From the NCBI GenBank assembly GCA_025357835.1, contig JANYLM010000130.1, positions 1 through 64,000 of the forward strand: a stretch of 64,000 nt of DNA. The letters run 5' to 3'. Within the stretch, counting starts at the first letter, position 1. Each line of letters opens with the position of its first letter. The notes below the pieces were generated by a model that had not been told where the DNA came from, made no database searches, and worked only from the letters and a program-made list of their open reading frames with translations. The position numbers and the translations under genes are program-made. Positions 22-17,937 of this stretch are shown here, one piece after another. Source of the stretch: Gammaproteobacteria bacterium (GTDB lineage: Bacteria; Pseudomonadota; Gammaproteobacteria; Steroidobacterales; Steroidobacteraceae).

Positions 22-954
22 TTGAATTCGACTCTAACATTGAATCTTAGTATGGCATTTGCTTGCGCGCTTCTTGGGCTATGGTGGCGCGAATTCGTTC
101 GACAGACACATTTTGTAAATTTGCGATACGAGCGCGCACTCCATATCGATGCCATTTACTGTCTGGCGACTTCCTTAGCATTGGCGATTATTGTCGCGAT
201 GACCAAACTGAATACGACTGCGGTGTTTTGGTGCATGGCATCTGGGGCGGTAATTTCGACGGCAATCCCGCTGTTTTTGATGCTTCGTGGCGTTCAATTC
301 AACGCGTCGGCAATCAGACGAGATGTTGCTCTATCTTGGCACGTGGGGCGGTGGGACGTGGCCGGTTCCATAGTTACTTGGGGTTATGCGCAAAGCTATA
401 TTTATTTTGCGGCTCTCCATGGAGGGTTGGATGCAGCAGCCGAAATTTCCGCCGGTCGACTGTTAGGCATGCCGTTGGCGCTAGTGTGGGCTTCATATGC
501 GAACGTCTTACGCCCTAGAGCATCACGACTTCTCGCAACCTCATCGAACGAGAGAGCTCAACAATTGGCGGTGCAGTCTGCTTTACTGGTCATAGGCCTC
601 TCGCTGGTATACGCGTTGATTGTTTTTGCCCTGATTCCGCAACTGGCGTCCACGCTCTTTGGTGGAAAATTCCCGAGGCTTAGAACAATATCTATGTGGT
701 GGATCGCATATTTTACGTTGACGGGCATCAGTACCGTGGCCGTAAGCGTGTTGCGCAGCGCGCTACAGTTTCAACAAGTGTTTCACCGACAAGTTATAAA
801 TTGCGCACTTGCAGTGGTACTTCTTACGGGTAGCCTGGAGTTTGCAGCTTTAGAATCGCTCGTCGTGGCGATGGTCATAGTGGAGGCTATCTCCGCGGCG
901 CTTCTTTGGCGAGTCGCCAAATCCGCTATATCGCGACATCAACAAGCCCCATAG
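22..954 (+). CDS. Wzx-like polysaccharide flippase / oligosaccharide transporter, probably 5'-truncated by the window edge
   Basis: Polytopic hydrophobic protein with the C-terminal pattern of polysaccharide flippases (GRLLGMPLALVWASYANVLRPRASRLLA); adjacent to EPS genes. Confidence 0.65.
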   Translation: MNSTLTLNLSMAFACALLGLWWREFVRQTHFVNLRYERALHIDAIYCLATSLALAIIVAMTKLNTTAVFWCMASGAVISTAIPLFLMLRGVQFNASAIRRDVALSWHVGRWDVAGSIVTWGYAQSYIYFAALHGGLDAAAEISAGRLLGMPLALVWASYANVLRPRASRLLATSSNERAQQLAVQSALLVIGLSLVYALIVFALIPQLASTLFGGKFPRLRTISMWWIAYFTLTGISTVAVSVLRSALQFQQVFHRQVINCALAVVLLTGSLEFAALESLVVAMVIVEAISAALLWRVAKSAISRHQQAP

Positions 955-1141: not shown

Positions 1142-1975
1142 ATGATTAGGAAGTCAGTACTCGTAGCGGCATCCACATTTATAGGGTTGCTTGAATTGGC
1201 TAGCGTTAATCCCGCTCGTGCGGAGGTGATCACCTATCTCGCAACTGGGACAATAGCCCGGGTTACAGGAAGTTTTTCACAGCCTGTGGCCACTGGCGAC
1301 ATTTGGACTTTGACATACAGTGAATTGTCCAATGCGCCGCCAGATACTCCGATTACTACTCCGGGAGGTGCTACGAGCGGGACGCTTGGCCACTACTCCA
1401 ATCAGTTAGGCTGGACGCTCACTGTTGCTGGTAGCACTGTGTACTCCACCGGCGGCGCGCAGACGCTTGGCGGCACGACCATTAGTGTCTACAACGATGT
1501 GTCATACCTAACACTGCCGAATTTGCCGACAAGCCACCTCGATGAGTACGTTACTACCGTTAACGATCTGTCCGCATACTCTTCGCCATTTGTCAGTCTC
1601 GCTGCCTCGGCCACAACTGTTGCTCCCGCGGCGCCCCCAAGCCTCTTCACATCATCGTCACTTCCGAGCTCCGCCATAAATATCGGGGCCACCGATACCA
1701 GCAGCATAACTATGAATTCTGGCGTGCCTGGGGTAGCTTTTTACGGGACGGTGATGTCCAAAGTACCCGTACCGTTGCCTGATTCCGTGTGGCTGCTCTT
1801 GGCGGGTCTGTGCGGTTTCGCGGCGACCGTTCGGCATATAGAGATCGATCAGGTTGTGGGTTTTGATCACCGCCGCGACATCTCGATTGACGAACTCGCT
1901 GCCGTGATCGTGCACGACTCGCGGTTTGGCGTCTTTGACCGCTTCGAGCGCCGCCTGCAGCTCGAGGGCGACTGA
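1142..1975 (+). pseudogene. VPLPA/PEP-CTERM-type secreted protein; extreme C-terminus replaced by IS3 sequence
   Basis: Signal peptide MIRKSVLVAASTFIGLLELASVNPARA; C-terminal VPVPLPDSVWLLLAGLCGFAATVR sorting-signal-like segment, then read-through into antisense IS3 transposase from about 1836. Confidence 0.7.
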
Positions 1976-2518
1976 TTGGCCGTCGAGGCTGATGAGCAGT
2001 TTGTGGTGCACGATGTATCGGCTGTAGGCATCGACAAAGCTCAGCAAGAAGTAGAACCGGGCGGCGACCCATACGTACATGACGTCGGTATGCCATTGTT
2101 GATTCGGTCCATTGGGCCGGAAGTTGTATTCGCCGCTCGAGACCGTCGAGCGTTTCCAGCGCGATAACAGATCGGCATCGCTCAACACACTGTAAACTGT
2201 GCTCTCCCCGACGCAGGCCACTCCCGCATCGACCATCATCCAGGTGAGCTTCCGATAACCGATCTTCGGGTACTGCAGGGCAAACTCGCAGATCCCGGCT
2301 CGCTCCTCGGGCAGCACCTCGTACACGCGGCAGGGTTGGCCAGCCCGATCCTCGAGGCTCTCACGCTTCCTCCAAGCGTAGAAGACGCTGCGCGGCACGC
2401 CCAGAGCAGCGAGTGTCCGATACACCCGCCACCCCGAGCGTCGTTTGGTTTGCTCAACGATCTGCATCACGGCCGCTTTCGTCTCCGCCGGTACCCGGAA
2501 TAAATCTTCCAGCTTCAA
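1658..2518 (-). pseudogene. IS3-family transposase OrfB, truncated; residues after HNLIDLY are not transposase
   Basis: NQQWHTDVMYVWV...VVHDHGSEFVNRDVAAVIKTHNLIDLY integrase core; final DDE Glu segment (HPESNG..ERF) absent. Confidence 0.85.
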
Positions 2519-2880
2519 ATCCTTTTTTTTAACTCCAGGTTCTCCGCCGTGATCTCTGCGATCACCGCACGCATCCGTTCAATTTCCGCCTTGTGCCGAG
2601 CTTCGGGATCGTCCTTACGCGGCTTTCGCTGCGCATCGCGCTTCAGCGCTACCGCCGAGCCGCCCTTGGCCACCGCCCGCCATCGATACAGCACCGAGGG
2701 CGATAGGCTGTGACGCCGGCACACCTCGCTCACCGTCACGCCGGGCTGGTCCGCCTCGCGTAGAATCTCTAGTTTCTGGTCAGCCGTAAATCGTCGATGT
2801 TCTCGTTTGCTCATCCACTTCGCTCCATCTGCGGGACGCCCGCAGCAGCTCGAAGTCTCTCATTTCCGCGCTAGCATTTT
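1836..2880 (-). mobile_element. Truncated IS3-family insertion sequence (orfA intact, orfB 3'-truncated); outer boundary approximate
   Basis: HTH_Tnp_1-like orfA, rve-domain orfB and A8G slippery site; orfB homology stops at about 1836-1842 inside the neighbouring gene. Confidence 0.8.
2515..2814 (-). CDS. IS3-family transposase OrfA
   Basis: MSKREHRRFTADQKLEILREADQPGVTVSEVCRRHSLSPSVLYRWR HTH_Tnp_1 pattern. Confidence 0.9.
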   Translation of the reverse strand: MSKREHRRFTADQKLEILREADQPGVTVSEVCRRHSLSPSVLYRWRAVAKGGSAVALKRDAQRKPRKDDPEARHKAEIERMRAVIAEITAENLELKKRI

Positions 2881-4878: not shown

Positions 4879-6474
4879 ATGATCATGCAGAATACTCAGG
4901 AGGTGCCCCTAAACTTACAGGCTTGGCGCCTTCCGCTTGGGATGGTTGCCGTCGCGCTCGGTGTAGCAGCAGCCGTTATGTACCTGTTCTGGGATGGCCT
5001 TACTTACATGTGGGGCACTTGGATGATTACCCCGGAATACAGTCACGGAGTGCTCATTCCGTTCGTCAGCGCATTTCTAATTTGGCAAAATAAAGATCAA
5101 ATCGAGAGACTGCCGATGACCGGAAGTTGGGGGGGGCTCGTTTTGGTTACCCTCGGTGGCTTGATGCTCATCATCGGCCAACTTGCAACGGTCTATACCA
5201 TCGTTCAATACGCGTTCATTGTCACAGTAGTCGGTCTCGTACTCGCGCTTTCAGGGAGTCAGGCTTTCCGCCTTTTTGCGATTCCCCTCGTTTTTCTCTC
5301 CTTTATGGTGCCTCCGCCCTATTTCGTGCTCCACAATTTATCGACCAAATTGCAATTGCTGTCGTCCGAATTCGGCGTTTGGTTCATGCGGTTGCTCGAT
5401 ATCAGTGTTTTTGTCGAAGGCAACGTGATCGATTTGGGGGGCTACAAGCTCCAAGTGGCTGAAGCCTGCGATGGCCTGAGATATCTCTTTCCAATGATGA
5501 CCTTGGGTTTCCTATTCGCCTATTTTTATAAGGGCGCGATGTGGAAGAGACTCTTCGTGTTCGCTTCGAGCTTTTTTATCACAATTTTCATGAACAGCTT
5601 TCGCATCGGCACGATCGGTGTAATGGTCGAACACTGGGGCATTGGCATGGCGGAAGGATTTCTGCACGAGTTCCAAGGCTGGGCGGTATTTATGTTCAGC
5701 GCCGTGCTTCTCATTGTTGAAATCGTGCTGCTCAATCGCATCGGTCATGAGGCCGGAACGTGGCGACAGCTATTCGGAATTGAATTTCCCGCACCAACAC
5801 CGAAGGGATACTCGGTGCGCGATCGCACGATGCCCCGGCAATTCCTCGGCGCCGCAGCGCTGTTGCTGCTGTTTATGACGATTTCATTTGCTTTGCCGCG
5901 GCCAGTGGAAAACGCACCCCGGCGCGCCGCGTTCCTTGCTTTTCCAATGGAAATCGGCAAATGGAGCGGGCGTTCGCAAACAATGGAAGGCGTATATCAG
6001 AATGCTTTGAAATTGGATGATTATCTGCTGGTCGATTACAACGACGGTATTGGTCCGCCGGTCAATTTGTATATCGCCTACTACAGCTCGCAGCGTAAAG
6101 GCGAGGCCGTTCATTCCCCAAGATCCTGCCTTCCCGGCGGCGGATGGCAGTTTCGCGGTTTCGATCAGCGGACGCTGCAGGAAGTGAAAATCAACGGTGA
6201 GCCGCTCCGGGTGAATCGAACCTTGATTGAACTCGGCAACCAGCGTCAATTGGTCTACTACTGGTTCCAGCAACGTGGTCGCGTCATTACCAACGAATTC
6301 GCGGTCAAATGGTATTTATTTTGGGATGCACTGACACGCCACCGCACTGACGGAGCATTGGTCCGTCTGATCGTGGCGCTGCCGCCGGCAAGCAACGAAT
6401 CGGAGGCCGATCGCCGGCTGACGGACCTGGCAGGTCGCATTGCGCCGACACTAACCCAATTCGTGCCGAATTAG
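4879..6474 (+). CDS. xrtD: Exosortase (XrtD/VPLPA-CTERM-specific type) with C-terminal EpsI domain
   Basis: Polytopic N-terminus with VAEACDGLRYLFPMM (Cys), MNSFRIG (Arg), FLHEFQGW (His); EpsI-like HSPRSCLPGGGWQF and YWFQQRGR. Confidence 0.85.
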   Translation: MIMQNTQEVPLNLQAWRLPLGMVAVALGVAAAVMYLFWDGLTYMWGTWMITPEYSHGVLIPFVSAFLIWQNKDQIERLPMTGSWGGLVLVTLGGLMLIIGQLATVYTIVQYAFIVTVVGLVLALSGSQAFRLFAIPLVFLSFMVPPPYFVLHNLSTKLQLLSSEFGVWFMRLLDISVFVEGNVIDLGGYKLQVAEACDGLRYLFPMMTLGFLFAYFYKGAMWKRLFVFASSFFITIFMNSFRIGTIGVMVEHWGIGMAEGFLHEFQGWAVFMFSAVLLIVEIVLLNRIGHEAGTWRQLFGIEFPAPTPKGYSVRDRTMPRQFLGAAALLLLFMTISFALPRPVENAPRRAAFLAFPMEIGKWSGRSQTMEGVYQNALKLDDYLLVDYNDGIGPPVNLYIAYYSSQRKGEAVHSPRSCLPGGGWQFRGFDQRTLQEVKINGEPLRVNRTLIELGNQRQLVYYWFQQRGRVITNEFAVKWYLFWDALTRHRTDGALVRLIVALPPASNESEADRRLTDLAGRIAPTLTQFVPN

Positions 6475-6481
6475 GCACGAT

Positions 6482-8122
6482 ATGCTGTACGGCATGCCCT
6501 TTCTGATGGCCATGGTGGTAACCATGGCTTGGATGCCGGTATTCGCACGTGTCGCGCATCATTGGGGCGTGGTTGACAGGCCGGGTGCGCGAAAGGTGCA
6601 TGCCGCGCCTATCCCGCGCATCGGTGGCATCGCCATGGTCATCGGCGTCATGGTCGCGGCACTCATCGTGATTCCCCTCGAACCTCGAGATTCATGCTTC
6701 CTTCTGGCGGCAGCTGTGCTCGCCTGCTTCGGAGTGTTGGATGATCGCTTCGATTTGGACTACCGCGTCAAGCTCATCGGTCAGCTCCTGGCGGTCTTGA
6801 TCGTGGCTATCGCGGGCGGCACACAAATTCAGTCGATTACTCTCGACGAGCGGATATGGCTGCCGCAATGGGTTTCTCTGCCCCTGACTGTGGTTTTCCT
6901 GGTGGGCATCACCAACGCCATCAATCTCGCGGACGGACTAGATGGATTGGCCGGAGGCACGACCTTCCTGTGTCTCGGTGCTGTCGCGATGTTGGCCCAC
7001 AGCAGCGGGCAACTCGTCAGCGCAGCGCTCGCAATGGCATTCGCGGGCGCAGTTCTTGGCTTTCTGAGATTCAACACGTTTCCCGCTACGGTTTTCATGG
7101 GCGATGCCGGTAGCCAGGTGCTCGGTTTTGCCGTGGGTGTCCTAAGCCTGCGGGCCACGCAGAGCAGCGATAGTGCGGTAAGTGCCGCTTTGCCGGTGTT
7201 GCTGTTGGCTCTGCCGATTCTCGACACGTTAAGCGTGATGGTGCAGCGAGTTAGTGAAGGCCGCTCGCCGTTCAGCGCAGATAAGAATCATATTCACCAC
7301 AAACTGCTTCAGTTTGGGTTCGACCATCACGAAGCGGTAATGGTGATTTACGCAATTCAAGCCGATCTATTCTTGATGGCTTACTGGCTGCGATTTGAGT
7401 CCGATCTGACGATCATCTCGGTCGTCACAATCTTTTTTATTGCGTCTCTCGTGATCTTGCAGACTGCGACGCGACGCGGGTGGCGATTCCGCCAGGGAAG
7501 CGCGGCCGGTTCCGACTCTCCTTTGTCGCGGTTTCTCGCTAAAATGCGTCAACCGGAATATTTGCCGCGATGGTCCTATGGCGCCGTTGCCGTCTCGGTT
7601 GGTGTTTATGCCAGTTTAATTCTGGCTAGAGCCGCTTCATTCGGCGGGGATATCCAAATTCTGCTGTTGGCGCTGCTCGCGGTCACTGTGATCTTGCTTG
7701 CCGTCCTGCGCGCTAAGCCGCTTAACATAATCGAAAAAGCTACTCTGTATGTTACGACGGCGGTGCTTGTGTACCTTGATAGTGCCGTGCTCCCCGAGCA
7801 TCACATGTTTGCGGCGCTGGGTTGGGCGGCAGTTTTGGTTGCAGGCGGCGGGACCGCAATGCGATTGCGATTGTCCCCGGACCGACGCTTCGTTTTGACG
7901 CCTTTGGACTTGATAGTCTTATTCGTTGCTCTTGTGGTTCCCAGCCTGCAGAGCAGTTTGGCGTTGCCGCACGGCAGCGCGGCCGGAATCGCCAAACTCG
8001 TGATCTTGTTTTATGCGCTCGAAGTGCTGCTTAGCCGCGTAAGCCTGGGCGTGGTGTGGTTGCGCTTGGCGACCGCGACGGTGTTGCTCGGACTGACGCT
8101 TAGGCCGCTTATCCCACTCTGA
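6482..8122 (+). CDS. WecA/MraY-family undecaprenyl-phosphate sugar-1-phosphate transferase with extended C-terminal membrane region
   Basis: DRPGARKVHAAPIPRIGG, NAINLADGLDGLAGG, VFMGDAGSQVLGF, SADKNHIHHKLL motifs. Confidence 0.88.
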   Translation: MLYGMPFLMAMVVTMAWMPVFARVAHHWGVVDRPGARKVHAAPIPRIGGIAMVIGVMVAALIVIPLEPRDSCFLLAAAVLACFGVLDDRFDLDYRVKLIGQLLAVLIVAIAGGTQIQSITLDERIWLPQWVSLPLTVVFLVGITNAINLADGLDGLAGGTTFLCLGAVAMLAHSSGQLVSAALAMAFAGAVLGFLRFNTFPATVFMGDAGSQVLGFAVGVLSLRATQSSDSAVSAALPVLLLALPILDTLSVMVQRVSEGRSPFSADKNHIHHKLLQFGFDHHEAVMVIYAIQADLFLMAYWLRFESDLTIISVVTIFFIASLVILQTATRRGWRFRQGSAAGSDSPLSRFLAKMRQPEYLPRWSYGAVAVSVGVYASLILARAASFGGDIQILLLALLAVTVILLAVLRAKPLNIIEKATLYVTTAVLVYLDSAVLPEHHMFAALGWAAVLVAGGGTAMRLRLSPDRRFVLTPLDLIVLFVALVVPSLQSSLALPHGSAAGIAKLVILFYALEVLLSRVSLGVVWLRLATATVLLGLTLRPLIPL

Positions 8123-8217
8123 GAGCCCCGGCCTTATTGACCGCTTCCGGGCCGACGTCACGGGAACGTCATGTGACGTGACTACACTTTTCGGCCAATC
8201 CCATTCGGAATTCAACG

Positions 8218-10647
8218 ATGCCGACCCGTATTGCCGCCGCGCGATTCCTGTCCATTGGTGTGCTCAGTGTCGTAACGTTTGCGTTGTGCGCCTGTGGCGG
8301 CGCGCAAGAGCGAAAGGCGCGGCATCTCGCCAAGGGGCAAACCTACCTCGCCGACGGCAATTTCGACAAGGCGCGCGTTGAATTTCAAAATGCACTGCAA
8401 ATTGCCCCCGCTGATCCCGAAGCAAGGTTCGCGATGGGGGTCGTGGATGAAAAGCTAGCGAAAACACGTGAGGCAGCCCAGTTCTATCAGGGCACTATCG
8501 ATGTCAGTCCGGACCACCTGGGAGCGCGCACCAACCTGGCGCGCTTGTATATTTTCTCGGGAATCACTGATCGAGCATTGGAATTGATCAGCCCCTCTCT
8601 GGAGAAGCACCCGGACGATTCTGAGCTACTGACTCTGCGCGCGGCCGCCCGGGTTCAGCAAAAGGACCTTAGCGGCGCCCAGGCGGATGCAGAACGCGCA
8701 GTCGAACTAGACCCGAAAAACCAAGATGCGGTCGGAACCCTGGCGGGTGTTTATACATCGACCAAGGCCGTCGATAAAGCGCAGGCCCTATTGGAATCAT
8801 CGATCGCGAAAATACCGGAGACGGTGGATTTGCGGTTGGCGCTCGCGCAAGTATATGCGGGTGAAAATCGCACCGCGGATTCGGAACGGATCTTATTGGA
8901 CCTGGTGAGATTGCGACCCACCGATAAGGCGCACCGCATTCGCCTCGCGCAGCTCTATGCGCGTCAGAATCAATTGGACGCGGCGGAGCACGCGCTGAGA
9001 GATGGCATCAAAGCTATACCGCAGGATCGGGAACTGAAGCTCTCGCTTGCGGAGTTCCTCGCCACCCGCAGGAGTCCGGCGGCCGCCGAGAAAGAGCTCA
9101 AAGCCATGGTGATCGCGGACCCAAAGGACTTCGAAATGAAGTTCGCATTGGCGAAGTTTTATCAGGTCAACCGCCAGCCGGCCCTCGCAGAAGGCATTTA
9201 TCAGCAGGTTATCGATGGCGAGAAGCTCGACGCAGCGGGTCTCACGGCGCGCGACCGCCTCGCGGAATTGCGCGCTCAGCGCAATGACGTAGCGGGCGCG
9301 CAGGTACTGATAGGCGAAGTATTGGCCAAGAGTCCGCGCGATGACGATGCCTTGGTTTTGCGCAGCAATATCGCCATGGCGAAAAGAGACCCTAAATCCG
9401 CGATTGCCGATTTGCGCACCGTGTTGCGCGATCAGCCCAATGCCATCGGCGTGCTGCGGACTTTGGCGCGCGCCCATCTGGCCAATGGCGAGCCTGCGAT
9501 CGCCGAGGAAACTATGCGCCGCGCGGTTGAGGCGAATCCAAAAGACGCTGCCTTGAGATTGGATTTGGCGCAGCTACTGGCGCAGCTGGGCAAGCCCGAG
9601 CAAGCTAAGCCCATCGTCGCCGAATTGGTGAAGGAGCAACCCAATAACATCCCAGCGTTGGACGTATTGTTTCGCGTCAGTGCGTCCATGAAGGACTATG
9701 TTACCGCTCGGTCCGCCGCCGAAGCCATTGTCACTACACAGCCGAAAGCGGCTGACGGCTTTTTTTACGAAGGCATGTTGGCCGAAACCGAGAAGCGAAA
9801 TGACGACGCATTGCGGTTGTACGACCAAGCGGTGGATCTGCAGCCGGAGGCGCTCGAACCACTGCAGGCGGAGATCAGGATGCTGGTCGCTGCCAAGCGG
9901 GTACCAGAGGCTATCAAACGACTTGACGCCTTGATCGCGCGGGTCCCAAGCAAAGCCTTGGCGCCCAACATGAAGGGCGAATTGCTGCTTGCACAGGGCA
10001 ATCCGAGCGATGCACAAGCTGCTTTCAAGCTAGCGATTGCGCGTGCGCCGAAGTGGTGGGAGCCCTACCGTGGGGTGGCGTACACCCAGTTCGCGGCCAA
10101 AGACTCGGATGCCGCGCTGGCTACCTTGCGTAGTGCGCAATCCTCGGTGGACGAGCCGAGTAAATTGAGCTTTGAAATAGCCTCATACTTCGAGCGAACC
10201 GGAAAGCCGGAAGAAGCGATTCGTCAATATGAGGACGTGATTCGCCGCGACCCCCAGTCCGAAGTGGCGGCAAATAATTTGGCCATGTTACTCGTGACAT
10301 TTGAGAAGGATGCGGCCAGTCTCGACCGGGCCAAATCCCTGTCCGCCCGATTTTCCGATTCGTCGAATCCTTCTTATTTGGATACCTACGGCTGGGTATT
10401 GTTCAAGCACGGCGAGGCAGCGGCCTCGATGCCAGTCCTCGAGCGCGTCGTATTGAAGGTGCCCGACGCGCCCGTGGCGCTGTATCACTTGGGAATGGCA
10501 CAGTCCCAGGCCGGTCGCCCAGCGCAAGCGGTTGATAGCCTCACGCGAGCTGTGAAGTCCGGGGCGAAATTCTCAGGCTTCGATGAGGCCAAAGCGACGC
10601 TCGACAAGCTGGCCACGCCAGCGGCCAACGCGCCGTCCAAGACGTGA
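8218..10647 (+). CDS. prsT: PrsT-like TPR-repeat lipoprotein of the PEP-CTERM system
   Basis: Lipobox ALCAC followed by about 800 aa of TPR repeats; immediately downstream of exosortase and glycosyltransferase. Confidence 0.78.
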   Translation: MPTRIAAARFLSIGVLSVVTFALCACGGAQERKARHLAKGQTYLADGNFDKARVEFQNALQIAPADPEARFAMGVVDEKLAKTREAAQFYQGTIDVSPDHLGARTNLARLYIFSGITDRALELISPSLEKHPDDSELLTLRAAARVQQKDLSGAQADAERAVELDPKNQDAVGTLAGVYTSTKAVDKAQALLESSIAKIPETVDLRLALAQVYAGENRTADSERILLDLVRLRPTDKAHRIRLAQLYARQNQLDAAEHALRDGIKAIPQDRELKLSLAEFLATRRSPAAAEKELKAMVIADPKDFEMKFALAKFYQVNRQPALAEGIYQQVIDGEKLDAAGLTARDRLAELRAQRNDVAGAQVLIGEVLAKSPRDDDALVLRSNIAMAKRDPKSAIADLRTVLRDQPNAIGVLRTLARAHLANGEPAIAEETMRRAVEANPKDAALRLDLAQLLAQLGKPEQAKPIVAELVKEQPNNIPALDVLFRVSASMKDYVTARSAAEAIVTTQPKAADGFFYEGMLAETEKRNDDALRLYDQAVDLQPEALEPLQAEIRMLVAAKRVPEAIKRLDALIARVPSKALAPNMKGELLLAQGNPSDAQAAFKLAIARAPKWWEPYRGVAYTQFAAKDSDAALATLRSAQSSVDEPSKLSFEIASYFERTGKPEEAIRQYEDVIRRDPQSEVAANNLAMLLVTFEKDAASLDRAKSLSARFSDSSNPSYLDTYGWVLFKHGEAAASMPVLERVVLKVPDAPVALYHLGMAQSQAGRPAQAVDSLTRAVKSGAKFSGFDEAKATLDKLATPAANAPSKT

Positions 10648-10691
10648 ATTTTTCAAGTCGTTCCACTTAATTCGAGAAATCGGAGTATTCG

Positions 10692-12746
10692 ATGAATCAA
10701 AGACCCTCGCAGGGATTCTTGGCGTTTGCCGTGGCGTGCTGCGCGTTCTGGGACGTCGCTCACGCGGCAGACCCCTTGCCCGCGGAGACGCGACTCGTTG
10801 CAGCTAGCAATGCCCCGGTGACTTTATATGGGACTGCCTCCAACCAGCCAGCCTCATTCACCATCGCAAACCCCGAAGACCTCGTCGTCACCCTGACCGA
10901 TCTGAAAATTCCCACTGCGCTGGCTTCTGCCGGCGTCGTGGTGACTCAGGCGGGCGCCATTGCAGGTAGCGCGCTGCTGGCCGCTCCGGCGACTACGGCG
11001 ACGGTTTCGCTTCCTGCCGCCAATGGGAACTACACGCTGTACGTCTTCGGTGTTCCGGACTCCGCGGCTAGCGTCGGTACGTTTACCGCTTGCGTGGCGC
11101 CGAAAGCCAACCCATCTAATTGCATCCAAGGAGCATCACTGTCGGGGAACATCACCTCGCAATCCACGGCCAAAGACCCGACGGTGTCGACTTTGAGCAC
11201 CAACCTGAGCGTCACGACGTCGGGCTCGTACACGTTCACCTTCGCCGATTTGCAATTTCCGGCCGCATTGAGCACGCCGCCTAGCGTGGTCTTGTCTCAA
11301 GGCAGTACTGTCATCTTCCCACCAGGGCAGACCACCAACCCCGCGATTACCTCCGGCACCTCCCTGAACTTGAGCGCCGGTACTTACACCGTTTTTGCCA
11401 TTGCCCAGGCAGATCAGACAATCAAGTCCGGCTTGTACGGCATCACCATCAGCGGCCCCGCGGGTGTTGCGCCTCTATTGAATGCTGCCATACCCGTCGG
11501 ACTCTCGAATGCTGCGGCATCGTTCAATAATCCCGCTGCACAATCCGTGACGCTCAAGGTTACGGACTACGGGTTCCCCGGACCTCTTGCGAGCGGGAGC
11601 GCGCTGTTGACTGCTGGGGGCAGTGCTCTGGGTACGGCCAGCGCCGCCGGCGGTGCGGCAAGCTTCGCGGCCCCGGCGGGAACTCTCCAGCTCTGGACCT
11701 ATGGAAACGCGGGTGCCACTGCCGGCACCTTCAGCGCCGATGTGTCGGCGGGATCGACAGACTTGTACACGGCTGCGCAAGGCATTCAAGCTGCTGCGGT
11801 CCCTTCGACTTATGCGTATGCATTCGTTGTGCCGCAGCCGCTATTGGCGGGCGCCTATCAGGCCACCGCGGCAGATCTGCAATTCCCTTCGCAACTGAGC
11901 GCCGTGTCGTTTGCGGTCGCACAAAGCGGCTCAATCGTAAAGCAGTCAGCCGCCGCTGGGACGGTGAATTTCACGGCCATCGCTGGGACGGCGATCCTAT
12001 TGGTCAGTGCGCAGGCACCCTCCGCGGGCAGCGCTTCAGGCAGTGGTCTGTTCGACGTCAATCTGCAGACCAGCGGAACGTCTGCACAGCTGGTGTATGA
12101 CAAGACCCAGCGGGTGGGCAATGCCACGCTGTTCGATTCACAGACACTTACCGTCGGTGTGAATGCCAGTTTTGATGTGAGTTTGACCGATCTGAAATTT
12201 CCAGCACAATTTAGCAACTTAGCGCTGGTGGTCTCGCGCGGTGCTGAATTTCTGGGCAAGGCCTATGGCGGGGGCTTATTTACGTTTCCCGCGTCTCCCG
12301 GCACTTATCAGTTGACCTTCGTCGCCACCCCTGCCACCCAGCCCCCGCAGCAGGTAGGTCTCTACGGTGTTTCGATCGTTTACTCCCCACCGGCGATCAC
12401 GCTGTCTTCCAGCGCGACGACGGCGGTCACGGGCACCGCCATTACGCTGAGTTGGAGCGCCACCAATGCAGTGAGTTGCGCGGCCAGTGGTGGCAGCTGG
12501 ATGGGCAGCAAGAACACGAGCAGCGGCACAGAGTCCGTCGTTCTGGATGCGACGACGACCTATAAGCTGGCTTGCACGGGTGACGGCGGTACAACGTCTC
12601 AATCGGTGACTGTTGCCGCCACAGCGAAACCATCGAGTTCAGGGGGCGGCGGCGGGGCGCTAGGTCTCGGTTTCCTTGCGCTAGGAAGCGCGCTGGCGAG
12701 CATACGCATGGTCAGATATACGCGACGAGACAAGCGCCAAGCCTAG
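10692..12746 (+). CDS. Secreted protein with five about 105-aa tandem repeats, an Ig-like segment and a GlyGly-CTERM-like tail; function unknown
   Basis: Signal peptide; repeats marked by DLKIPTAL, DLQFPAAL, DYGFPGPL, DLQFPSQL, DLKFPAQF; C-terminus SSSGGGGGALGLGFLALGSALASIRMVRYTRR. Confidence 0.75.
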   Translation: MNQRPSQGFLAFAVACCAFWDVAHAADPLPAETRLVAASNAPVTLYGTASNQPASFTIANPEDLVVTLTDLKIPTALASAGVVVTQAGAIAGSALLAAPATTATVSLPAANGNYTLYVFGVPDSAASVGTFTACVAPKANPSNCIQGASLSGNITSQSTAKDPTVSTLSTNLSVTTSGSYTFTFADLQFPAALSTPPSVVLSQGSTVIFPPGQTTNPAITSGTSLNLSAGTYTVFAIAQADQTIKSGLYGITISGPAGVAPLLNAAIPVGLSNAAASFNNPAAQSVTLKVTDYGFPGPLASGSALLTAGGSALGTASAAGGAASFAAPAGTLQLWTYGNAGATAGTFSADVSAGSTDLYTAAQGIQAAAVPSTYAYAFVVPQPLLAGAYQATAADLQFPSQLSAVSFAVAQSGSIVKQSAAAGTVNFTAIAGTAILLVSAQAPSAGSASGSGLFDVNLQTSGTSAQLVYDKTQRVGNATLFDSQTLTVGVNASFDVSLTDLKFPAQFSNLALVVSRGAEFLGKAYGGGLFTFPASPGTYQLTFVATPATQPPQQVGLYGVSIVYSPPAITLSSSATTAVTGTAITLSWSATNAVSCAASGGSWMGSKNTSSGTESVVLDATTTYKLACTGDGGTTSQSVTVAATAKPSSSGGGGGALGLGFLALGSALASIRMVRYTRRDKRQA

Positions 12747-12892
12747 TAAAACCGGGACACAGCGTACCCGGCACCGGCCGCCGGTCGCTGTTGCTAAATT
12801 GTAACGCTGAGGAACGATTTGCTGTTACACGCATTCATTATGCTTCGTCACAAGTAACCAAAATCGCGAATGATTCGCAGCGTGCGCAGACC

Positions 12893-13618
12893 ATGAATTA
12901 CAGAGACTACGTGAAATCGACTGTTGTGCCCTTGGGCCTGACTCTGGTGCTCGGCGCGACAGTAGCCCATGCCGACCTGGTGACCCCCGTTGGCACCAAT
13001 CAGCCTCTGATCTTGGCTCTCAGCTGGTCCGCAACCGGTGCCGGCACGCGGTCTCCAGCGACAATTACGGGTGACCCCACCACCACGTCGGGACCTGTCA
13101 AAGTCAGCGATCTGACGGGCAATCCGGCAAGCAACTACAGCTTCACCAACAGTTTTTCGGCGGCAAACGGCGCTTACGCCGCCGGCACGCTTCAGGGGCA
13201 GAAATACAATTTCGTTGATACTTACGTGATTGATATTCCGACTGCTCAGGCCAGTGCGTACATCTTTTCCTTGAACCTAACACAGCAGCTGGGTATTCAA
13301 AATCTGACCGCGCGCCTGTACGACTATTCCGCCGGTGGTGTCCAGAATCTGACCATCGGCGGAACTGGCGCCGTCAATGGTGTAGTTGCGGGTCCGTGGT
13401 CGCCCGAAGTCAACGGGGTGGTTTCCTCCACCCAGCTGTTGGCAGCGAACGTGACTAGCGGTGAATACGTACTGCAGGTAGTGGGCCTGGAAACGGGTAC
13501 CCAAAGCGGCATGTACAACGGAAGTTTGGCGGTTACGCCGGTACCGCTGCCGGCTGCACTGCCGTTATTGCTGTCGGGGTTGGGCGGTCTTGGTCTTTGG
13601 GGCCGTCGCCGCCGCTGA
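12893..13618 (+). CDS. VPLPA-CTERM sorting-domain secreted protein
   Basis: Signal peptide MNYRDYVKSTVVPLGLTLVLGATVAHA; C-terminus TPVPLPAALPLLLSGLGGLGLWGRRRR. Confidence 0.88.
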   Translation: MNYRDYVKSTVVPLGLTLVLGATVAHADLVTPVGTNQPLILALSWSATGAGTRSPATITGDPTTTSGPVKVSDLTGNPASNYSFTNSFSAANGAYAAGTLQGQKYNFVDTYVIDIPTAQASAYIFSLNLTQQLGIQNLTARLYDYSAGGVQNLTIGGTGAVNGVVAGPWSPEVNGVVSSTQLLAANVTSGEYVLQVVGLETGTQSGMYNGSLAVTPVPLPAALPLLLSGLGGLGLWGRRRR

Positions 13619-13701
13619 GCTTTCGCCGGGCGTGCCGACAGGGGCGCAGGCATCTTCCACCCGTTAGACGCGCTCGCCCAGAGCGGACATACTCTCAAAC
13701 G

Positions 13702-14604
13702 ATGAAGTGTGTCTATCACCCGTCGTACTCCATCGCCTTGCCGCCCGGGCATCCTTTTCCGATGAGTAAGTATTTCGTGCTCAAGGACCAGCTCATTGCG
13801 GAAGGGATACTGTCAGCCGACGATATTCTGCAGCCGGCGCCGCTCGACACCCCCACTCTGGAGCTGGTGCATACGCGCGAATACTTGGCCAAGCTGGCGG
13901 CATCCGGCCTAACCGCGGCGGAGCAACGGCGTCTCGGCCTGCCTTGGTCGGAGGCGCTATGGCAAAGATCTTGTCTCGCTTCGGCGGGGACTCTGTTGGC
14001 GGCCCGCGCGGCGCTGGAGCATGGATTGGCCGGCAATCTGGCCGGCGGCACGCATCATGCCTTTGCCGATCATGGCGAGGGATTCTGTGTGCTCAACGAC
14101 GTCGCTATCGCCATACGTAAGTTGCAATCGGAGCGCGCCATCGAGCGGGCCGCAATCGTCGATCTCGATGTCCACCAAGGCAACGGCACGGCCGCCATTT
14201 TCGAAGCGGTGGACGAAGTCTTTACGTTCTCCATGCACGGGGAGCGGAACTATCCCATGGCGAAGATGCGTTCCAATCTGGACGTGCCCCTGAATGATGG
14301 GGCGGGCGACGACGAGTACCTCGAGGCGCTGCAGAGGCATTTGCCGATCGTGCTCGATACTGCTAAGGCCGATATCGTCTTCTATCTCGCCGGCGTGGAT
14401 GTGGCCGCCGGCGACCGCTATGGCAAACTGTCGCTCACGGAGCAGGGCATACGCCGCCGTGATCGATCGTTGATCGAGGCGGTGCGCGGTCGTGGTCTGC
14501 CTTTGACTATTGTGTTGGCGGGAGGCTATGCGGCGACGCGAGCGCGTACCGCCGAGTTGCATGCGCATGTATTTCGCGAATCGGTGGCCTACGAACGGAG
14601 GTGA
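13702..14604 (+). CDS. Histone deacetylase family protein (acetylpolyamine amidohydrolase / HDAC-like)
   Basis: LAGGTHHAFADHGEGFCVLNDVAIA, AAIVDLDVHQGNGTAAIF, VFYLAGVDVAAGDRYGKLSLT motifs. Confidence 0.92.
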   Translation: MKCVYHPSYSIALPPGHPFPMSKYFVLKDQLIAEGILSADDILQPAPLDTPTLELVHTREYLAKLAASGLTAAEQRRLGLPWSEALWQRSCLASAGTLLAARAALEHGLAGNLAGGTHHAFADHGEGFCVLNDVAIAIRKLQSERAIERAAIVDLDVHQGNGTAAIFEAVDEVFTFSMHGERNYPMAKMRSNLDVPLNDGAGDDEYLEALQRHLPIVLDTAKADIVFYLAGVDVAAGDRYGKLSLTEQGIRRRDRSLIEAVRGRGLPLTIVLAGGYAATRARTAELHAHVFRESVAYERR

Positions 14605-15140: not shown

Positions 15141-15169
15141 AGTCAATGGTTTAAAAAATGGCATTTTAC

Positions 15170-15187
15170 AAATGGGAATTCCCATTT
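15170..15187. promoter_or_regulatory. Perfect 18-bp palindrome, candidate TA operator
   Basis: AAATGGGAATTCCCATTT equals its own reverse complement; 12 bp upstream of the AbrB ATG. Confidence 0.65.
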
Positions 15188-15199
15188 TATATTGCCATT

Positions 15200-15474
15200 A
15201 TGAGTACGACAGTTACCCTCGACAAGGCAGGCCGAGTCGTTATTCCCAAAACGCTACGCGACGACCTGCAGCTTGCACCGGGAGACATACTTGCCCTGGA
15301 GTCTGACGGGGACAGTGTGGTGCTTCGCCCAGTGGTTCGGCTTCTGCGTTACGTAAGAAGCATGGCATTTGGGTGTTCCGCGGCGGGCAGAAGCTCTCCG
15401 GTGTTGAAACGAACAGGGCGATCGAGAGCCTACGGCGAGAGCGGGACCGCGCAGTGCGCGGTTCTTCGGAGTGA
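15200..15474 (+). pseudogene. AbrB/MazE-type VapB antitoxin with a 1-nt frameshift near 15334
   Basis: MSTTVTLDKAGRVVIPKTLRDDLQLAPGDILALESDGDSVVLRPV in frame, then GSASALRKKHGIWVFRGGQKLSGVETNRAIESLRRERDRAVRGSSE* in another frame. Confidence 0.82.
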
Positions 15475-15896
15475 AAGCCTTCCTGGACACCTCCGTGCTG
15501 GTTGCCACCTTTTACGGGGACCACGAGCATCACGAATCGAGTTTCGGTCTCTTTCTAAAGCAGGGACGCTCTACGGGCTGCACGGCGGCGCACTGCTTGG
15601 CGGAATTTTACTCGGTAGTGACAGGGAAGCCGGGCAAGGGGCGAGCAAGTCCCGATGAGGCTCTGCTTTTTCTGCGAGACGTCCGCGAGCGCTTGACCTT
15701 GGTCACGCTCGACGAAAATGAATATTTCAAAGTACTCGATGAAGCCGCTTCAGCCGGTATTATCGGTGGCAGCGCTTACGACGCGATCGCCGCGCATTGC
15801 GCTCTGAAAGCCAAAGCACAAACTATTTACACTTGGAATATCAAGCATTTTAACCGTCTCGGCGAGAATGTTGCTTCGCGCGTCAGACAACCCTAG
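15471..15896 (+). CDS. vapC: VapC-family PIN-domain toxin
   Basis: VKAFLDTSVLVATF, LAEFYSV, AYDAIAAHCAL, TWNIKHFNRLG; GTG start overlaps antitoxin stop. Confidence 0.88.
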   Translation: MKAFLDTSVLVATFYGDHEHHESSFGLFLKQGRSTGCTAAHCLAEFYSVVTGKPGKGRASPDEALLFLRDVRERLTLVTLDENEYFKVLDEAASAGIIGGSAYDAIAAHCALKAKAQTIYTWNIKHFNRLGENVASRVRQP

Positions 15897-16063
15897 GAGC
15901 CCGTTTTCAAGGCACCACTGATATTGATGCCTACGAGCACTAGTCATCTTTCGGCGAAGCGTCCCGGCTGATGTCCGGGCGGCCTTCTTTAGGAGTGCCT
16001 GAGGCGGTCGATAGCAAAGCCGGAGTAGGTAAGGGGCGGCCGGAAGCGTGATCTTGCGCCGTG

Positions 16064-16081
16064 GTATAACCGGGGTTATAC
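16064..16081. promoter_or_regulatory. Inverted repeat, candidate operator of the RHH/MazF module
   Basis: GTATAACC-GG-GGTTATAC immediately before antitoxin ATG at 16088. Confidence 0.55.
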
Positions 16082-16087
16082 TGTACG

Positions 16088-16333
16088 ATGAAGACCGCAA
16101 TCTCCATTCCCGACGTCATTTTTGAAGATGCCGAGCGTATGGCAAAACGTCGCGGCATCTCGCGGAGCGAGCTGTATGCGAAAGCGGTCGCTGAGTATCT
16201 CAATGCCGAGCGCTTCCAGGGCGTTCGTGAACGCCTTGATTCCATCTACGGCGATATCGACCCGCAAGTTTCGAGGCTCGATCCGGAGCTGGCCCGCCTC
16301 CAATACGCCTCACTTGATAAGGACGAGTGGTAA
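16088..16333 (+). CDS. Ribbon-helix-helix antitoxin (MazE/CopG-like)
   Basis: MKTAISIPDVIFEDAERMAKRRGISRSELYAKAVAEYL. Confidence 0.85.
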   Translation: MKTAISIPDVIFEDAERMAKRRGISRSELYAKAVAEYLNAERFQGVRERLDSIYGDIDPQVSRLDPELARLQYASLDKDEW

Positions 16334-16671
16334 TGCGGCGGGGCGAAATATGGTGGGCTTCGCTCGGCGATCCTAGCGGCTCAGGCCCAGGCTATCGCCG
16401 GCCCGTCGTCATCGTGCAGGCCGACGATTTCAATGACAGCGCAATACGCACTGTCCTTTGCGTATCGGTGACCTCGAATTTACGGCTCGGTGAGGCGCCC
16501 GGAAATGTCCGACTGGCGCGCCGCGCAAGCGGGTTGGCCAAGGACTCCATCGCCAATGTGTCCCGGGTGATCACCACCGACAAGCAATTTCTAACGCAAC
16601 GTATCGGGCGATTGGCGCCTACGACTTTGCGCGATATCGATGCCGGTCTGCGGCTGGTTCTGGCGCTGTGA
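16333..16671 (+). CDS. MazF/PemK-family endoribonuclease toxin
   Basis: MRRGEIWWASLGDPSGSGPGYRRPVVIVQADDFN; overlaps antitoxin stop (TAATG). Confidence 0.92.
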   Translation: MRRGEIWWASLGDPSGSGPGYRRPVVIVQADDFNDSAIRTVLCVSVTSNLRLGEAPGNVRLARRASGLAKDSIANVSRVITTDKQFLTQRIGRLAPTTLRDIDAGLRLVLAL

Positions 16672-17272: not shown

Positions 17273-17503
17273 ATGGCAACGTTGAATATCAAGAATCTGC
17301 CCGACAGCCTCTATAAGAAACTGCAGGCCCGCGCCAAGCGCGAGCGACGTTCGCTGGCGCAGGAGGTAACTCATTTATTGTGTCGTGCCGTCGAAACATC
17401 TAAACCACTGTCGATTCTGGATCTCAAAGGCCTGGGAAAGGAGCAGTGGCAGGGTGTTGATGCTGCGTCGCATGTGACAGAGGAACGCAACGCTTGGGAT
17501 TGA
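17273..17503 (+). CDS. FitA-like antitoxin
   Basis: MATLNIKNLPDSLYKKLQARAKRERRSLAQEVTHLL. Confidence 0.82.
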   Translation: MATLNIKNLPDSLYKKLQARAKRERRSLAQEVTHLLCRAVETSKPLSILDLKGLGKEQWQGVDAASHVTEERNAWD

Positions 17504-17937
17504 TGGAAGACGTGGGCCACGGAGCCATAGGCGTCGACACAGCCGCATTCATTTACTTCATTGAAGAGGATGCGCGATTCCTGCCGATCATTGAGCCGCT
17601 TTTTCGCGAAGCGGATCGCGGGCGCTGCACCCTGGTAACCTCCGCACTAACGCTACTGGAAGTGCTGGTTGTCCCGTACCGAGCCGGAAATCGTTTGCTT
17701 GCGGAACGCTACGAGAGTTTGCTGACTCGGAGTCGTGGGATTCGAGTCGTGGACATTTCTCGCGATCAGCTACGCGTTGCCGCGCAATTGCGTGCGACCA
17801 CCTCGATCAAGACACCTGATGCATTACAGGTAGCCGCAGCTCTATCCGGGGAATGTGCGAATTTCGTCACTAATGATCGCCGGATTCCAGCCTTACCGGG
17901 ACTGAAAGTACGACTGCTTGGCGCATACGCCTCTTAA
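17503..17937 (+). CDS. PIN-domain toxin (VapC/FitB-like)
   Basis: AIGVDTAAFIYFIEE, LTLLEVLVVPY, IKTPDALQVAAAL, NDRRIPALPGL; TGATG overlap with antitoxin. Confidence 0.85.
   Translation: MEDVGHGAIGVDTAAFIYFIEEDARFLPIIEPLFREADRGRCTLVTSALTLLEVLVVPYRAGNRLLAERYESLLTRSRGIRVVDISRDQLRVAAQLRATTSIKTPDALQVAAALSGECANFVTNDRRIPALPGLKVRLLGAYAS

What the first reader, a model, noticed from the sequence alone, without database searches (positions are those of the whole stretch)
4879..13618. Compact exosortase (XrtD-EpsI fusion) / VPLPA-CTERM export locus coupled to EPS synthesis
In one strand-uniform run: exosortase with Cys/Arg/His motifs fused to EpsI, a WecA/MraY-type glycosyl-1-phosphate transferase, a PrsT-like TPR lipoprotein, an unknown repeat protein and a VPLPA-CTERM protein, with a flippase and a second VPLPA-type gene upstream. 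Exosortase/PEP-CTERM systems are known; the assignment to XrtD follows from the VPLPA tails. The locus has two apparent cognate substrates plus one non-VPLPA secreted protein of unknown role, and may form a dedicated sorting and EPS unit.
Basis: partly seen in the sequence, partly recalled or inferred. Interest (0 to 1): 0.72.

Follow-up and report, generated by a model that had tools for sequence, protein, structure and literature searches.

The report
Exosortase locus carrying rhombosortase-type surface protein
This is a real, ordinary XrtD protein-sorting gene cluster tied to surface polysaccharide, but it also carries a conserved, undescribed repeat protein whose tail looks made for a different sorting enzyme (rhombosortase), so two C-terminal sorting routes seem to be paired in one surface-building unit.

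Summary
4879-6474 is XrtD (TIGR04152, 560.5 bits against a cut-off of 400) fused to EpsI, and it is the only exosortase found in this 94%-complete draft genome. It is followed by a GT4 glycosyl-1-phosphate transferase, PrsT, a five-repeat protein ("REP") and a VPLPA/FxDxF protein.

Two corrections. The upstream VPLPA gene has lost its 3' end to an IS3 remnant, so the locus has one intact VPLPA substrate; the genome has one more elsewhere. The "flippase" fragment matches no family.

The new part is REP. It matches no confident known family, but is conserved beside XrtD/PrsT. In 217 genomes of its family, REP occurs in 25, of which 22 also have XrtD (p=5e-19). All aligned REP tails are glycine run + hydrophobic stretch + basic residues, without VPLPA or PEP. 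All 25 REP genomes encode rhombosortase (126 of 192 others do). Among XrtD genomes, REP+ are 22/22 rhombosortase-positive and REP- 5/11 (p=4e-4), with joint absence on several branches of the XrtD tree.

Most likely, XrtD sorts the VPLPA protein, while rhombosortase plus type II secretion anchors REP in the same polysaccharide-associated surface layer. The curated GlyGly-CTERM model does not recognise the tail, and processing is untested.

The parts
4879..6474 (+). XrtD, VPLPA-specific exosortase (531 aa) with fused EpsI domain (aa 325-528, about 5851-6462); predicted catalytic Cys197 (5467-5469), Arg242 (5602-5604), His263 (5665-5667)
   Evidence: TIGR04152 560.5 bits, cut-off 400; PF09721 and DUF3485; C197/R242/H263 invariant in 14 XrtD; only exosortase found in the genome
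6482..8122 (+). Polyprenyl-phosphate glycosyl-1-phosphate transferase (GT4, WecA/MraY superfamily), 546 aa
   Evidence: PF00953 130 bits; TIGR02380 182 bits, below the 326 equivalog cut-off
8218..10647 (+). PrsT-like TPR lipoprotein (809 aa)
   Evidence: TIGR02917 323.6 bits, cut-off 312.2; LCAC lipobox-like N-terminus by eye
10692..12746 (+). REP (684 aa): signal peptide, five homologous beta repeats (D1 10824-11111, D2 11163-11465, D3 11475-11795, D4 11799-12080, D5 12081-12377), Ig-like domain (12381-12635), Gly linker and tail
   Evidence: No confident NCBIfam or Pfam match; repeats by hhalign; AlphaFold2 mean pLDDT 81; conserved beside XrtD/PrsT
12642..12743 (+). GlyGly-CTERM-like tail of REP: GGGGG, hydrophobic stretch, Arg/Lys-rich end (aa 651-684)
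   Evidence: Same layout in 11 of 11 aligned REP proteins, three glycines invariant; helix 660-677 after a low-confidence linker; not recognised by TIGR03501
12893..13618 (+). FxDxF-family VPLPA-CTERM protein (241 aa from the ATG at 12893), the intact XrtD substrate of the locus; sorting signal 13541-13615
   Evidence: TIGR03370 30.2 bits, NF038126 53.7 bits; six-frame 33.8 bits
1115..1975 (+). Damaged VPLPA-type gene (probable start ATG 1142); VPLPDSVWLLLAGLCGFAATVR then fused out of context into IS sequence at about 1837-1845
   Evidence: TIGR03370 23.1 bits as protein, 26.8 in six frames; junction read in the sequence
1840..2814 (-). IS3-family remnant (orfA 2515-2814; orfB lacking its C-terminal part)
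   Evidence: rve domain PF00665; ORFs; no other near-full-length copy in the genome
3918..4688 (+). FkbM-family methyltransferase, possibly part of glycan modification
   Evidence: TIGR01444 66 bits, cut-off 37.7
22..954 (+).
   Evidence: No family match that supports the name

Best explanation
This is an XrtD/VPLPA-CTERM sorting locus attached to envelope or exopolysaccharide synthesis, with a built-in second cargo that belongs to another sorting route. XrtD recognises the VPLPA tail of the 12893-13618 protein in the inner membrane, cuts it and passes it on for surface display (inferred from the family). PrsT and GT4 serve export of the partner and glycan lipid-carrier chemistry (inferred). 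REP is exported by Sec, held by its C-terminal helix, cut at the glycine run by the genome's rhombosortase, given a lipid-type anchor and moved out by the type II secretion system, to act as a rod-like, multi-domain beta protein in the same polysaccharide-associated surface layer (inferred; linkage, tail layout and co-occurrence are shown).
For: XrtD, PrsT and VPLPA assignments over curated cut-offs. Synteny XrtD-GT4-PrsT-REP, often with a VPLPA gene, in relatives; REP within 10 kb of XrtD in 15 genomes. Of 25 REP genomes 22 have XrtD, against 11 of 192 others, p=5e-19. Every aligned REP ends Gly-rich + hydrophobic + basic, without VPLPA/PEP. Rhombosortase in 25/25 REP genomes against 126/192 others, p=6e-5; within XrtD genomes 22/22 against 5/11, p=4e-4. 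The joint absences fall on several separate branches of the XrtD tree. In the XrtD loci of G252/G253, which lack rhombosortase, XrtD and PrsT remain and REP is absent. Own rhombosortase 127.8 bits (cut-off 84), beside gspJ/K/L and a gspM-like gene. In Vibrio cholerae rhombosortase cuts the GlyGly-CTERM protein VesB, which is then modified and exported by T2SS (PMC6219818, PMC13393428).
Against: TIGR03501 does not recognise the REP tail (one of 11 members, E=1.9), so GlyGly-CTERM membership rests on layout and co-occurrence. REP is not next to rhombosortase. Genomes are mostly drafts, the phylogenetic sample is small, and two of the six rhombosortase-negative XrtD genomes are under 80% complete. 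Two rhombosortase-positive genomes (G003, G038) have XrtD-locus sequence without REP. The role of REP and the polysaccharide link are inferred.
Confidence: 0.7

Rival explanations
1. XrtD itself processes both tails: the glycine-rich tail of REP is an unusual XrtD target, so the locus is a self-contained one-enzyme unit.
For: REP is encoded in the XrtD cluster and follows XrtD across genomes; the general layout motif-helix-basic is shared by all such signals.
Against: REP tails have no VPLPA/PEP motif. Six XrtD-positive genomes without rhombosortase all lack REP. Three REP-bearing genomes lack a detected XrtD (G005, G053, G262; drafts) but have rhombosortase. Similar Ig-plus-glycine tails occur on other proteins in genomes without XrtD.
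Confidence: 0.13
2. The REP tail is only a transmembrane anchor, not a sorting signal; the rhombosortase correlation reflects shared ancestry.
For: The curated GlyGly-CTERM model fails; rhombosortase is common in this family (151 of 217), and its presence in relatives is clustered.
Against: The glycine run at the helix border is invariant although the helix itself is not; the within-XrtD association is p=4e-4 and joint absence occurs on several branches.
Confidence: 0.14
3. Ordinary XrtD locus with an unrelated neighbour: REP is not functionally tied to the exosortase system.
For: A few REP genes are not beside XrtD (G125 46 kb, G034 40 kb away, G005 on a separate contig).
Against: 22 of 25 REP genomes have XrtD (p=5e-19); REP is usually next to PrsT even when XrtD is not adjacent.
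Confidence: 0.03

Closest known systems
XrtD / VPLPA-CTERM exosortase system (TIGR04152, TIGR03370)
   Same: Exosortase subfamily, EpsI fusion, VPLPA tail on the neighbouring secreted protein, PrsT and glycan genes nearby
   Different: Carries a conserved second cargo (REP) without a VPLPA/PEP tail
Rhombosortase / GlyGly-CTERM system (TIGR03902, TIGR03501; PMC3237569, PMC6219818)
   Same: Rhombosortase in the genome over cut-off; REP tail has Gly-rich motif, hydrophobic helix, basic end; T2SS genes beside rhombosortase
   Different: REP is encoded in an exosortase cluster, not beside rhombosortase; tail not recognised by the curated model
XrtA/PEP-CTERM and PrsT floc-forming systems (Aquincola, PMC9850573; Haft 2006, PMC1569441)
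   Same: PrsT next to a C-terminally sorted protein within an EPS context; in Aquincola prsT and pepA were involved in floc formation
   Different: Another exosortase class (from general knowledge, not tested here); no REP-like protein was noticed in the passages read; no RpoN -24/-12 site seen here beyond chance

Membership tests
XrtD (TIGR04152) | Score above the curated cut-off and best among exosortase subfamilies | tested here: met
   560.5 bits vs cut-off 400; next best XrtW 338 (below its 425)
XrtD (TIGR04152) | Exosortase Cys-Arg-His residues | tested here: met
   C197, R242, H263 invariant in 14 proteins
XrtD (TIGR04152) | EpsI domain fused to the C-terminus | tested here: met
   TIGR02914 152.5 bits aa 354-528; PF11984 209.9 bits
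XrtD (TIGR04152) | VPLPA-CTERM substrates in the same genome | tested here: met
   Three over cut-off in six frames, one of them damaged
XrtD (TIGR04152) | Cleaves VPLPA tails | not testable with these tools
   Needs a mutant and protein analysis
VPLPA-CTERM protein (12893-13618) | TIGR03370 above cut-off at the C-terminus, N-terminal signal peptide | tested here: met
   30.2 bits vs 25.35; signal peptide MNYRDYVKSTVVPLGLTLVLGATVAHA read by eye
VPLPA-CTERM protein (1115-1975) | Complete tail with basic end at the C-terminus | tested here: not met
   Tail runs into IS3 remnant; 23.1 bits as protein, below cut-off
GlyGly-CTERM (REP) | TIGR03501 above cut-off | tested here: not met
   No hit for the window protein; one of 11 members at E=1.9; related NF038115 in three members, best E=0.034
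GlyGly-CTERM (REP) | Tripartite tail: Gly-rich motif, hydrophobic helix, basic cluster | tested here: met
   11 of 11 aligned members; helix 660-677 in the model
GlyGly-CTERM (REP) | Co-occurrence with rhombosortase | tested here: met
   25 of 25 REP genomes; p=6e-5 overall, 4e-4 within XrtD genomes
GlyGly-CTERM (REP) | Cleavage by rhombosortase and T2SS export | not testable with these tools
   Needs wet-lab work
Rhombosortase (genome contig C15) | TIGR03902 above cut-off | tested here: met
   127.8 bits vs 84
PrsT | TIGR02917 above cut-off | tested here: met
   323.6 bits vs 312.2

The most novel reading that the evidence does not exclude
Exosortase and rhombosortase act as a coupled pair in one surface layer: REP, delivered by rhombosortase and type II secretion, is a dedicated scaffold or receptor for the XrtD-sorted VPLPA protein and its polysaccharide, so that each cargo needs the other system to be placed or to work.
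Probability: 0.25. Interest if true: 0.7.

Novelty: new variant of a known kind. Interest (0 to 1): 0.5.

Why it matters
Exosortase systems have known substrates but largely unknown partners and purpose. A conserved protein family that sits in XrtD clusters yet carries what looks like another enzyme's tail gives a concrete partner to test, and links two surface-sorting routes that are usually described apart (only five papers in the searched library name both enzymes). This genome also offers a small system, with few VPLPA genes and one detected exosortase, of the kind in which deletions could be read cleanly.

Tried and rejected
REP repeats as FxDxF-type domains: profile comparison gave only a weak local match outside the repeats, so not supported. 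Pfam and NCBIfam for all REP members: only scattered weak Ig-like or beta-sandwich hits. PDB sequence search with the REP profile: none. PDB fold search: long chains of Ig-like/beta-sandwich domains at query TM 0.09-0.13, not specific. AlphaFold of the VPLPA protein: poor (pLDDT 51), not used. RpoN -24/-12 promoters as in Aquincola: 11 matches in the window against 14.7 expected by chance, not used. Promoter scan: at chance level, not used; the terminator scan exceeded shuffles (20 vs 11.0) but was not interpreted. Looking for other copies of the IS to fix its edge: only a diverged fragment. Literature on XrtD or VPLPA by name: nothing relevant in the open library; Haft 2012 not held.
Full report
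CHECK OF THE OBSERVATION. The gene run is real and all on the + strand. The 531-aa product of 4879-6474 scores 560.5 bits against the XrtD model (cut-off 400); the next subfamily, XrtW, reaches 338 and fails its own cut-off. The C-terminal half is EpsI/DUF3485. In an alignment of 14 XrtD proteins, C197, R242 and H263 are invariant, in the contexts EACDGLRY, NSFRIG and LHEFQGW. A six-frame search of the host genome (4.05 Mb, 148 contigs, 94.4% complete) finds no other exosortase. Downstream are a GT4/PF00953 glycosyl-1-phosphate transferase, PrsT over its cut-off, a protein without any family (REP, 10692-12746), and a VPLPA-CTERM protein of the FxDxF family starting at ATG 12893.

The second VPLPA-type gene (ORF 1115-1975) is damaged: its coding sequence reads VPLPDSVWLLLAGLCGFAATVR and then, at about 1837-1845, runs into an IS3 orfB on the other strand which itself lacks its C-terminal part. 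Over the whole genome three VPLPA tails pass the cut-off in six frames: the intact one here, this damaged one, and one on contig C84; the general PEP-CTERM model adds no further convincing case. The "flippase" at 22-954 has no family match that supports the name and is cut by the contig start.

WHAT REP IS. REP has a signal peptide (by eye), five homologous repeats of about 95 aa (all pairs align by profile at 97.5-99.2% probability), an unrelated Ig-like domain with two cysteines, a glycine-rich linker and a hydrophobic tail with a basic end. AlphaFold2 on an 11-sequence alignment gives mean pLDDT 81: a chain of beta domains, a low-confidence linker at 650-659 and a helix at 660-677. Sequence and fold searches against the PDB give no specific relative. 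The Ig-like domain with a similar tail recurs on other proteins of these bacteria, as a sorting suffix would.

REP BELONGS TO THE XrtD LOCUS. In relatives the order XrtD-GT4-PrsT-REP is kept, often with a VPLPA gene next. In 217 genomes of the family, REP (strong matches to the profile, E up to 1e-68; a few are cut by contig ends) is in 25, XrtD (E up to 1e-60) in 33, and 22 share both, p=5e-19. In 15 of them REP lies within 10 kb of XrtD. Three REP genomes lack a detected XrtD (G005, G053, G262); in G053 the REP gene is on a short contig beside PrsT. In a scan of 84,980 species genomes, only ten loci match most of REP; all are gammaproteobacterial or unclassified proteobacterial metagenome bins, and the remaining listed matches cover mainly the Ig-like domain; records of the window's own or a very near genome may be left out there.

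REP TRACKS RHOMBOSORTASE. All aligned REP tails have a run of glycines, a hydrophobic stretch and arginines or lysines, with no VPLPA or PEP motif. This is the layout of GlyGly-CTERM, the signal for rhombosortase (PMC3237569). The host genome has a rhombosortase over the cut-off (127.8 bits), and its gene lies beside type II secretion genes gspJ, gspK, gspL and a gspM-like gene. All 25 REP genomes have rhombosortase over the cut-off, against 126 of 192 others (p=6e-5). Within the 33 XrtD genomes the split is 22 of 22 with REP and 5 of 11 without (p=4e-4). On a maximum-likelihood tree of XrtD the six genomes lacking both need four changes, at least three of them forced by well-supported branches. 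In G252 and G253 XrtD and PrsT are present and REP is absent, while a congener, G148, has REP and rhombosortase. Of the five XrtD genomes with rhombosortase but no REP, G257 and G271 have the locus cut by a contig end near the expected REP position, and in G137 XrtD itself is split over two contigs; G003 and G038 appear to lack REP in the locus.

LIMITS. The curated GlyGly-CTERM model does not recognise these tails, so I do not file REP as a member by that test; I claim that it works like one. The tests are co-occurrence counts on mostly draft genomes, related to one another, and the Fisher values ignore that relatedness; two of the six XrtD genomes without rhombosortase are under 80% complete (G101, G242). 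The REP cut-off was chosen after seeing the gap in the score list. Nothing here shows cleavage, anchoring, export or a polysaccharide.

MECHANISM, WITH STATUS. Shown: gene content, order, conservation, tail layout, co-occurrence, presence of XrtD, rhombosortase and T2SS genes. Inferred from known families: XrtD acts on the VPLPA tail; rhombosortase cuts at the glycines, after which the protein is modified and exported by T2SS, as demonstrated for VesB of Vibrio cholerae (PMC6219818; PMC13393428); [quoted passage not shown] Speculative: REP is a rod-like scaffold for the VPLPA protein or its polysaccharide. EPS context in relatives: AsnB-type amidotransferase, glycosyltransferases related to XrtA/HpsP types, a Wzy_C protein, an acyltransferase.

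VERDICT. A genuine XrtD locus, ordinary in its core, with a conserved undescribed component that appears to tie a rhombosortase-type cargo to an exosortase unit. In the open library searched, five papers name both enzymes; in the two of them that I opened, the passages read show no such linkage.

Noticed in passing
L105:11002-14795 (same place as L073:15390-19183, genome G004): Directly after REP lies an 875-aa protein with tail DDAPLPPWATVALALGLLLLATRR, a 172-aa small exosortase-like protein (XrtM-like 64 bits, below cut-off; exo_archaeo signature over cut-off) and a 215-aa protein: perhaps a second, dedicated sortase-and-target cassette in the same locus.
   Followed up: partly
L092:6737-13220 (host contig C15): Rhombosortase gene beside gspJ, gspK, gspL and a gspM-like gene of type II secretion, a linkage that suits the sorting-then-export order.
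   Followed up: partly
Many genomes of the family, e.g. G005:C47:1596-1985, G122:C266:2381-2731, G035:C1:71637-71984: Ig-like domain plus the REP-type tail recurs at the end of proteins otherwise unlike REP: perhaps a widespread sorting suffix missed by the curated model.
   Followed up: partly
L199:2325-6728 (genome G241): REP and PrsT-like sequence in one 1467-aa open frame, a possible fusion or read-through.
   Followed up: no
window 15158-16671 and 17494-17937: Small ORFs that look, by eye, like AbrB/PIN, CopG/MazF-like and PIN toxin-antitoxin genes downstream of the locus.
   Followed up: no
window 13597-14604: ORF that reads by eye like a histone-deacetylase-family enzyme; it flanks the sorting locus in several relatives, but no NCBIfam match was found.
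   Followed up: partly
G104, G204, G291: A second, shorter XrtD-like match (230-268 bits) in XrtD-bearing genomes, on the same contig as XrtD in G104 and G204; nature not examined.
   Followed up: no
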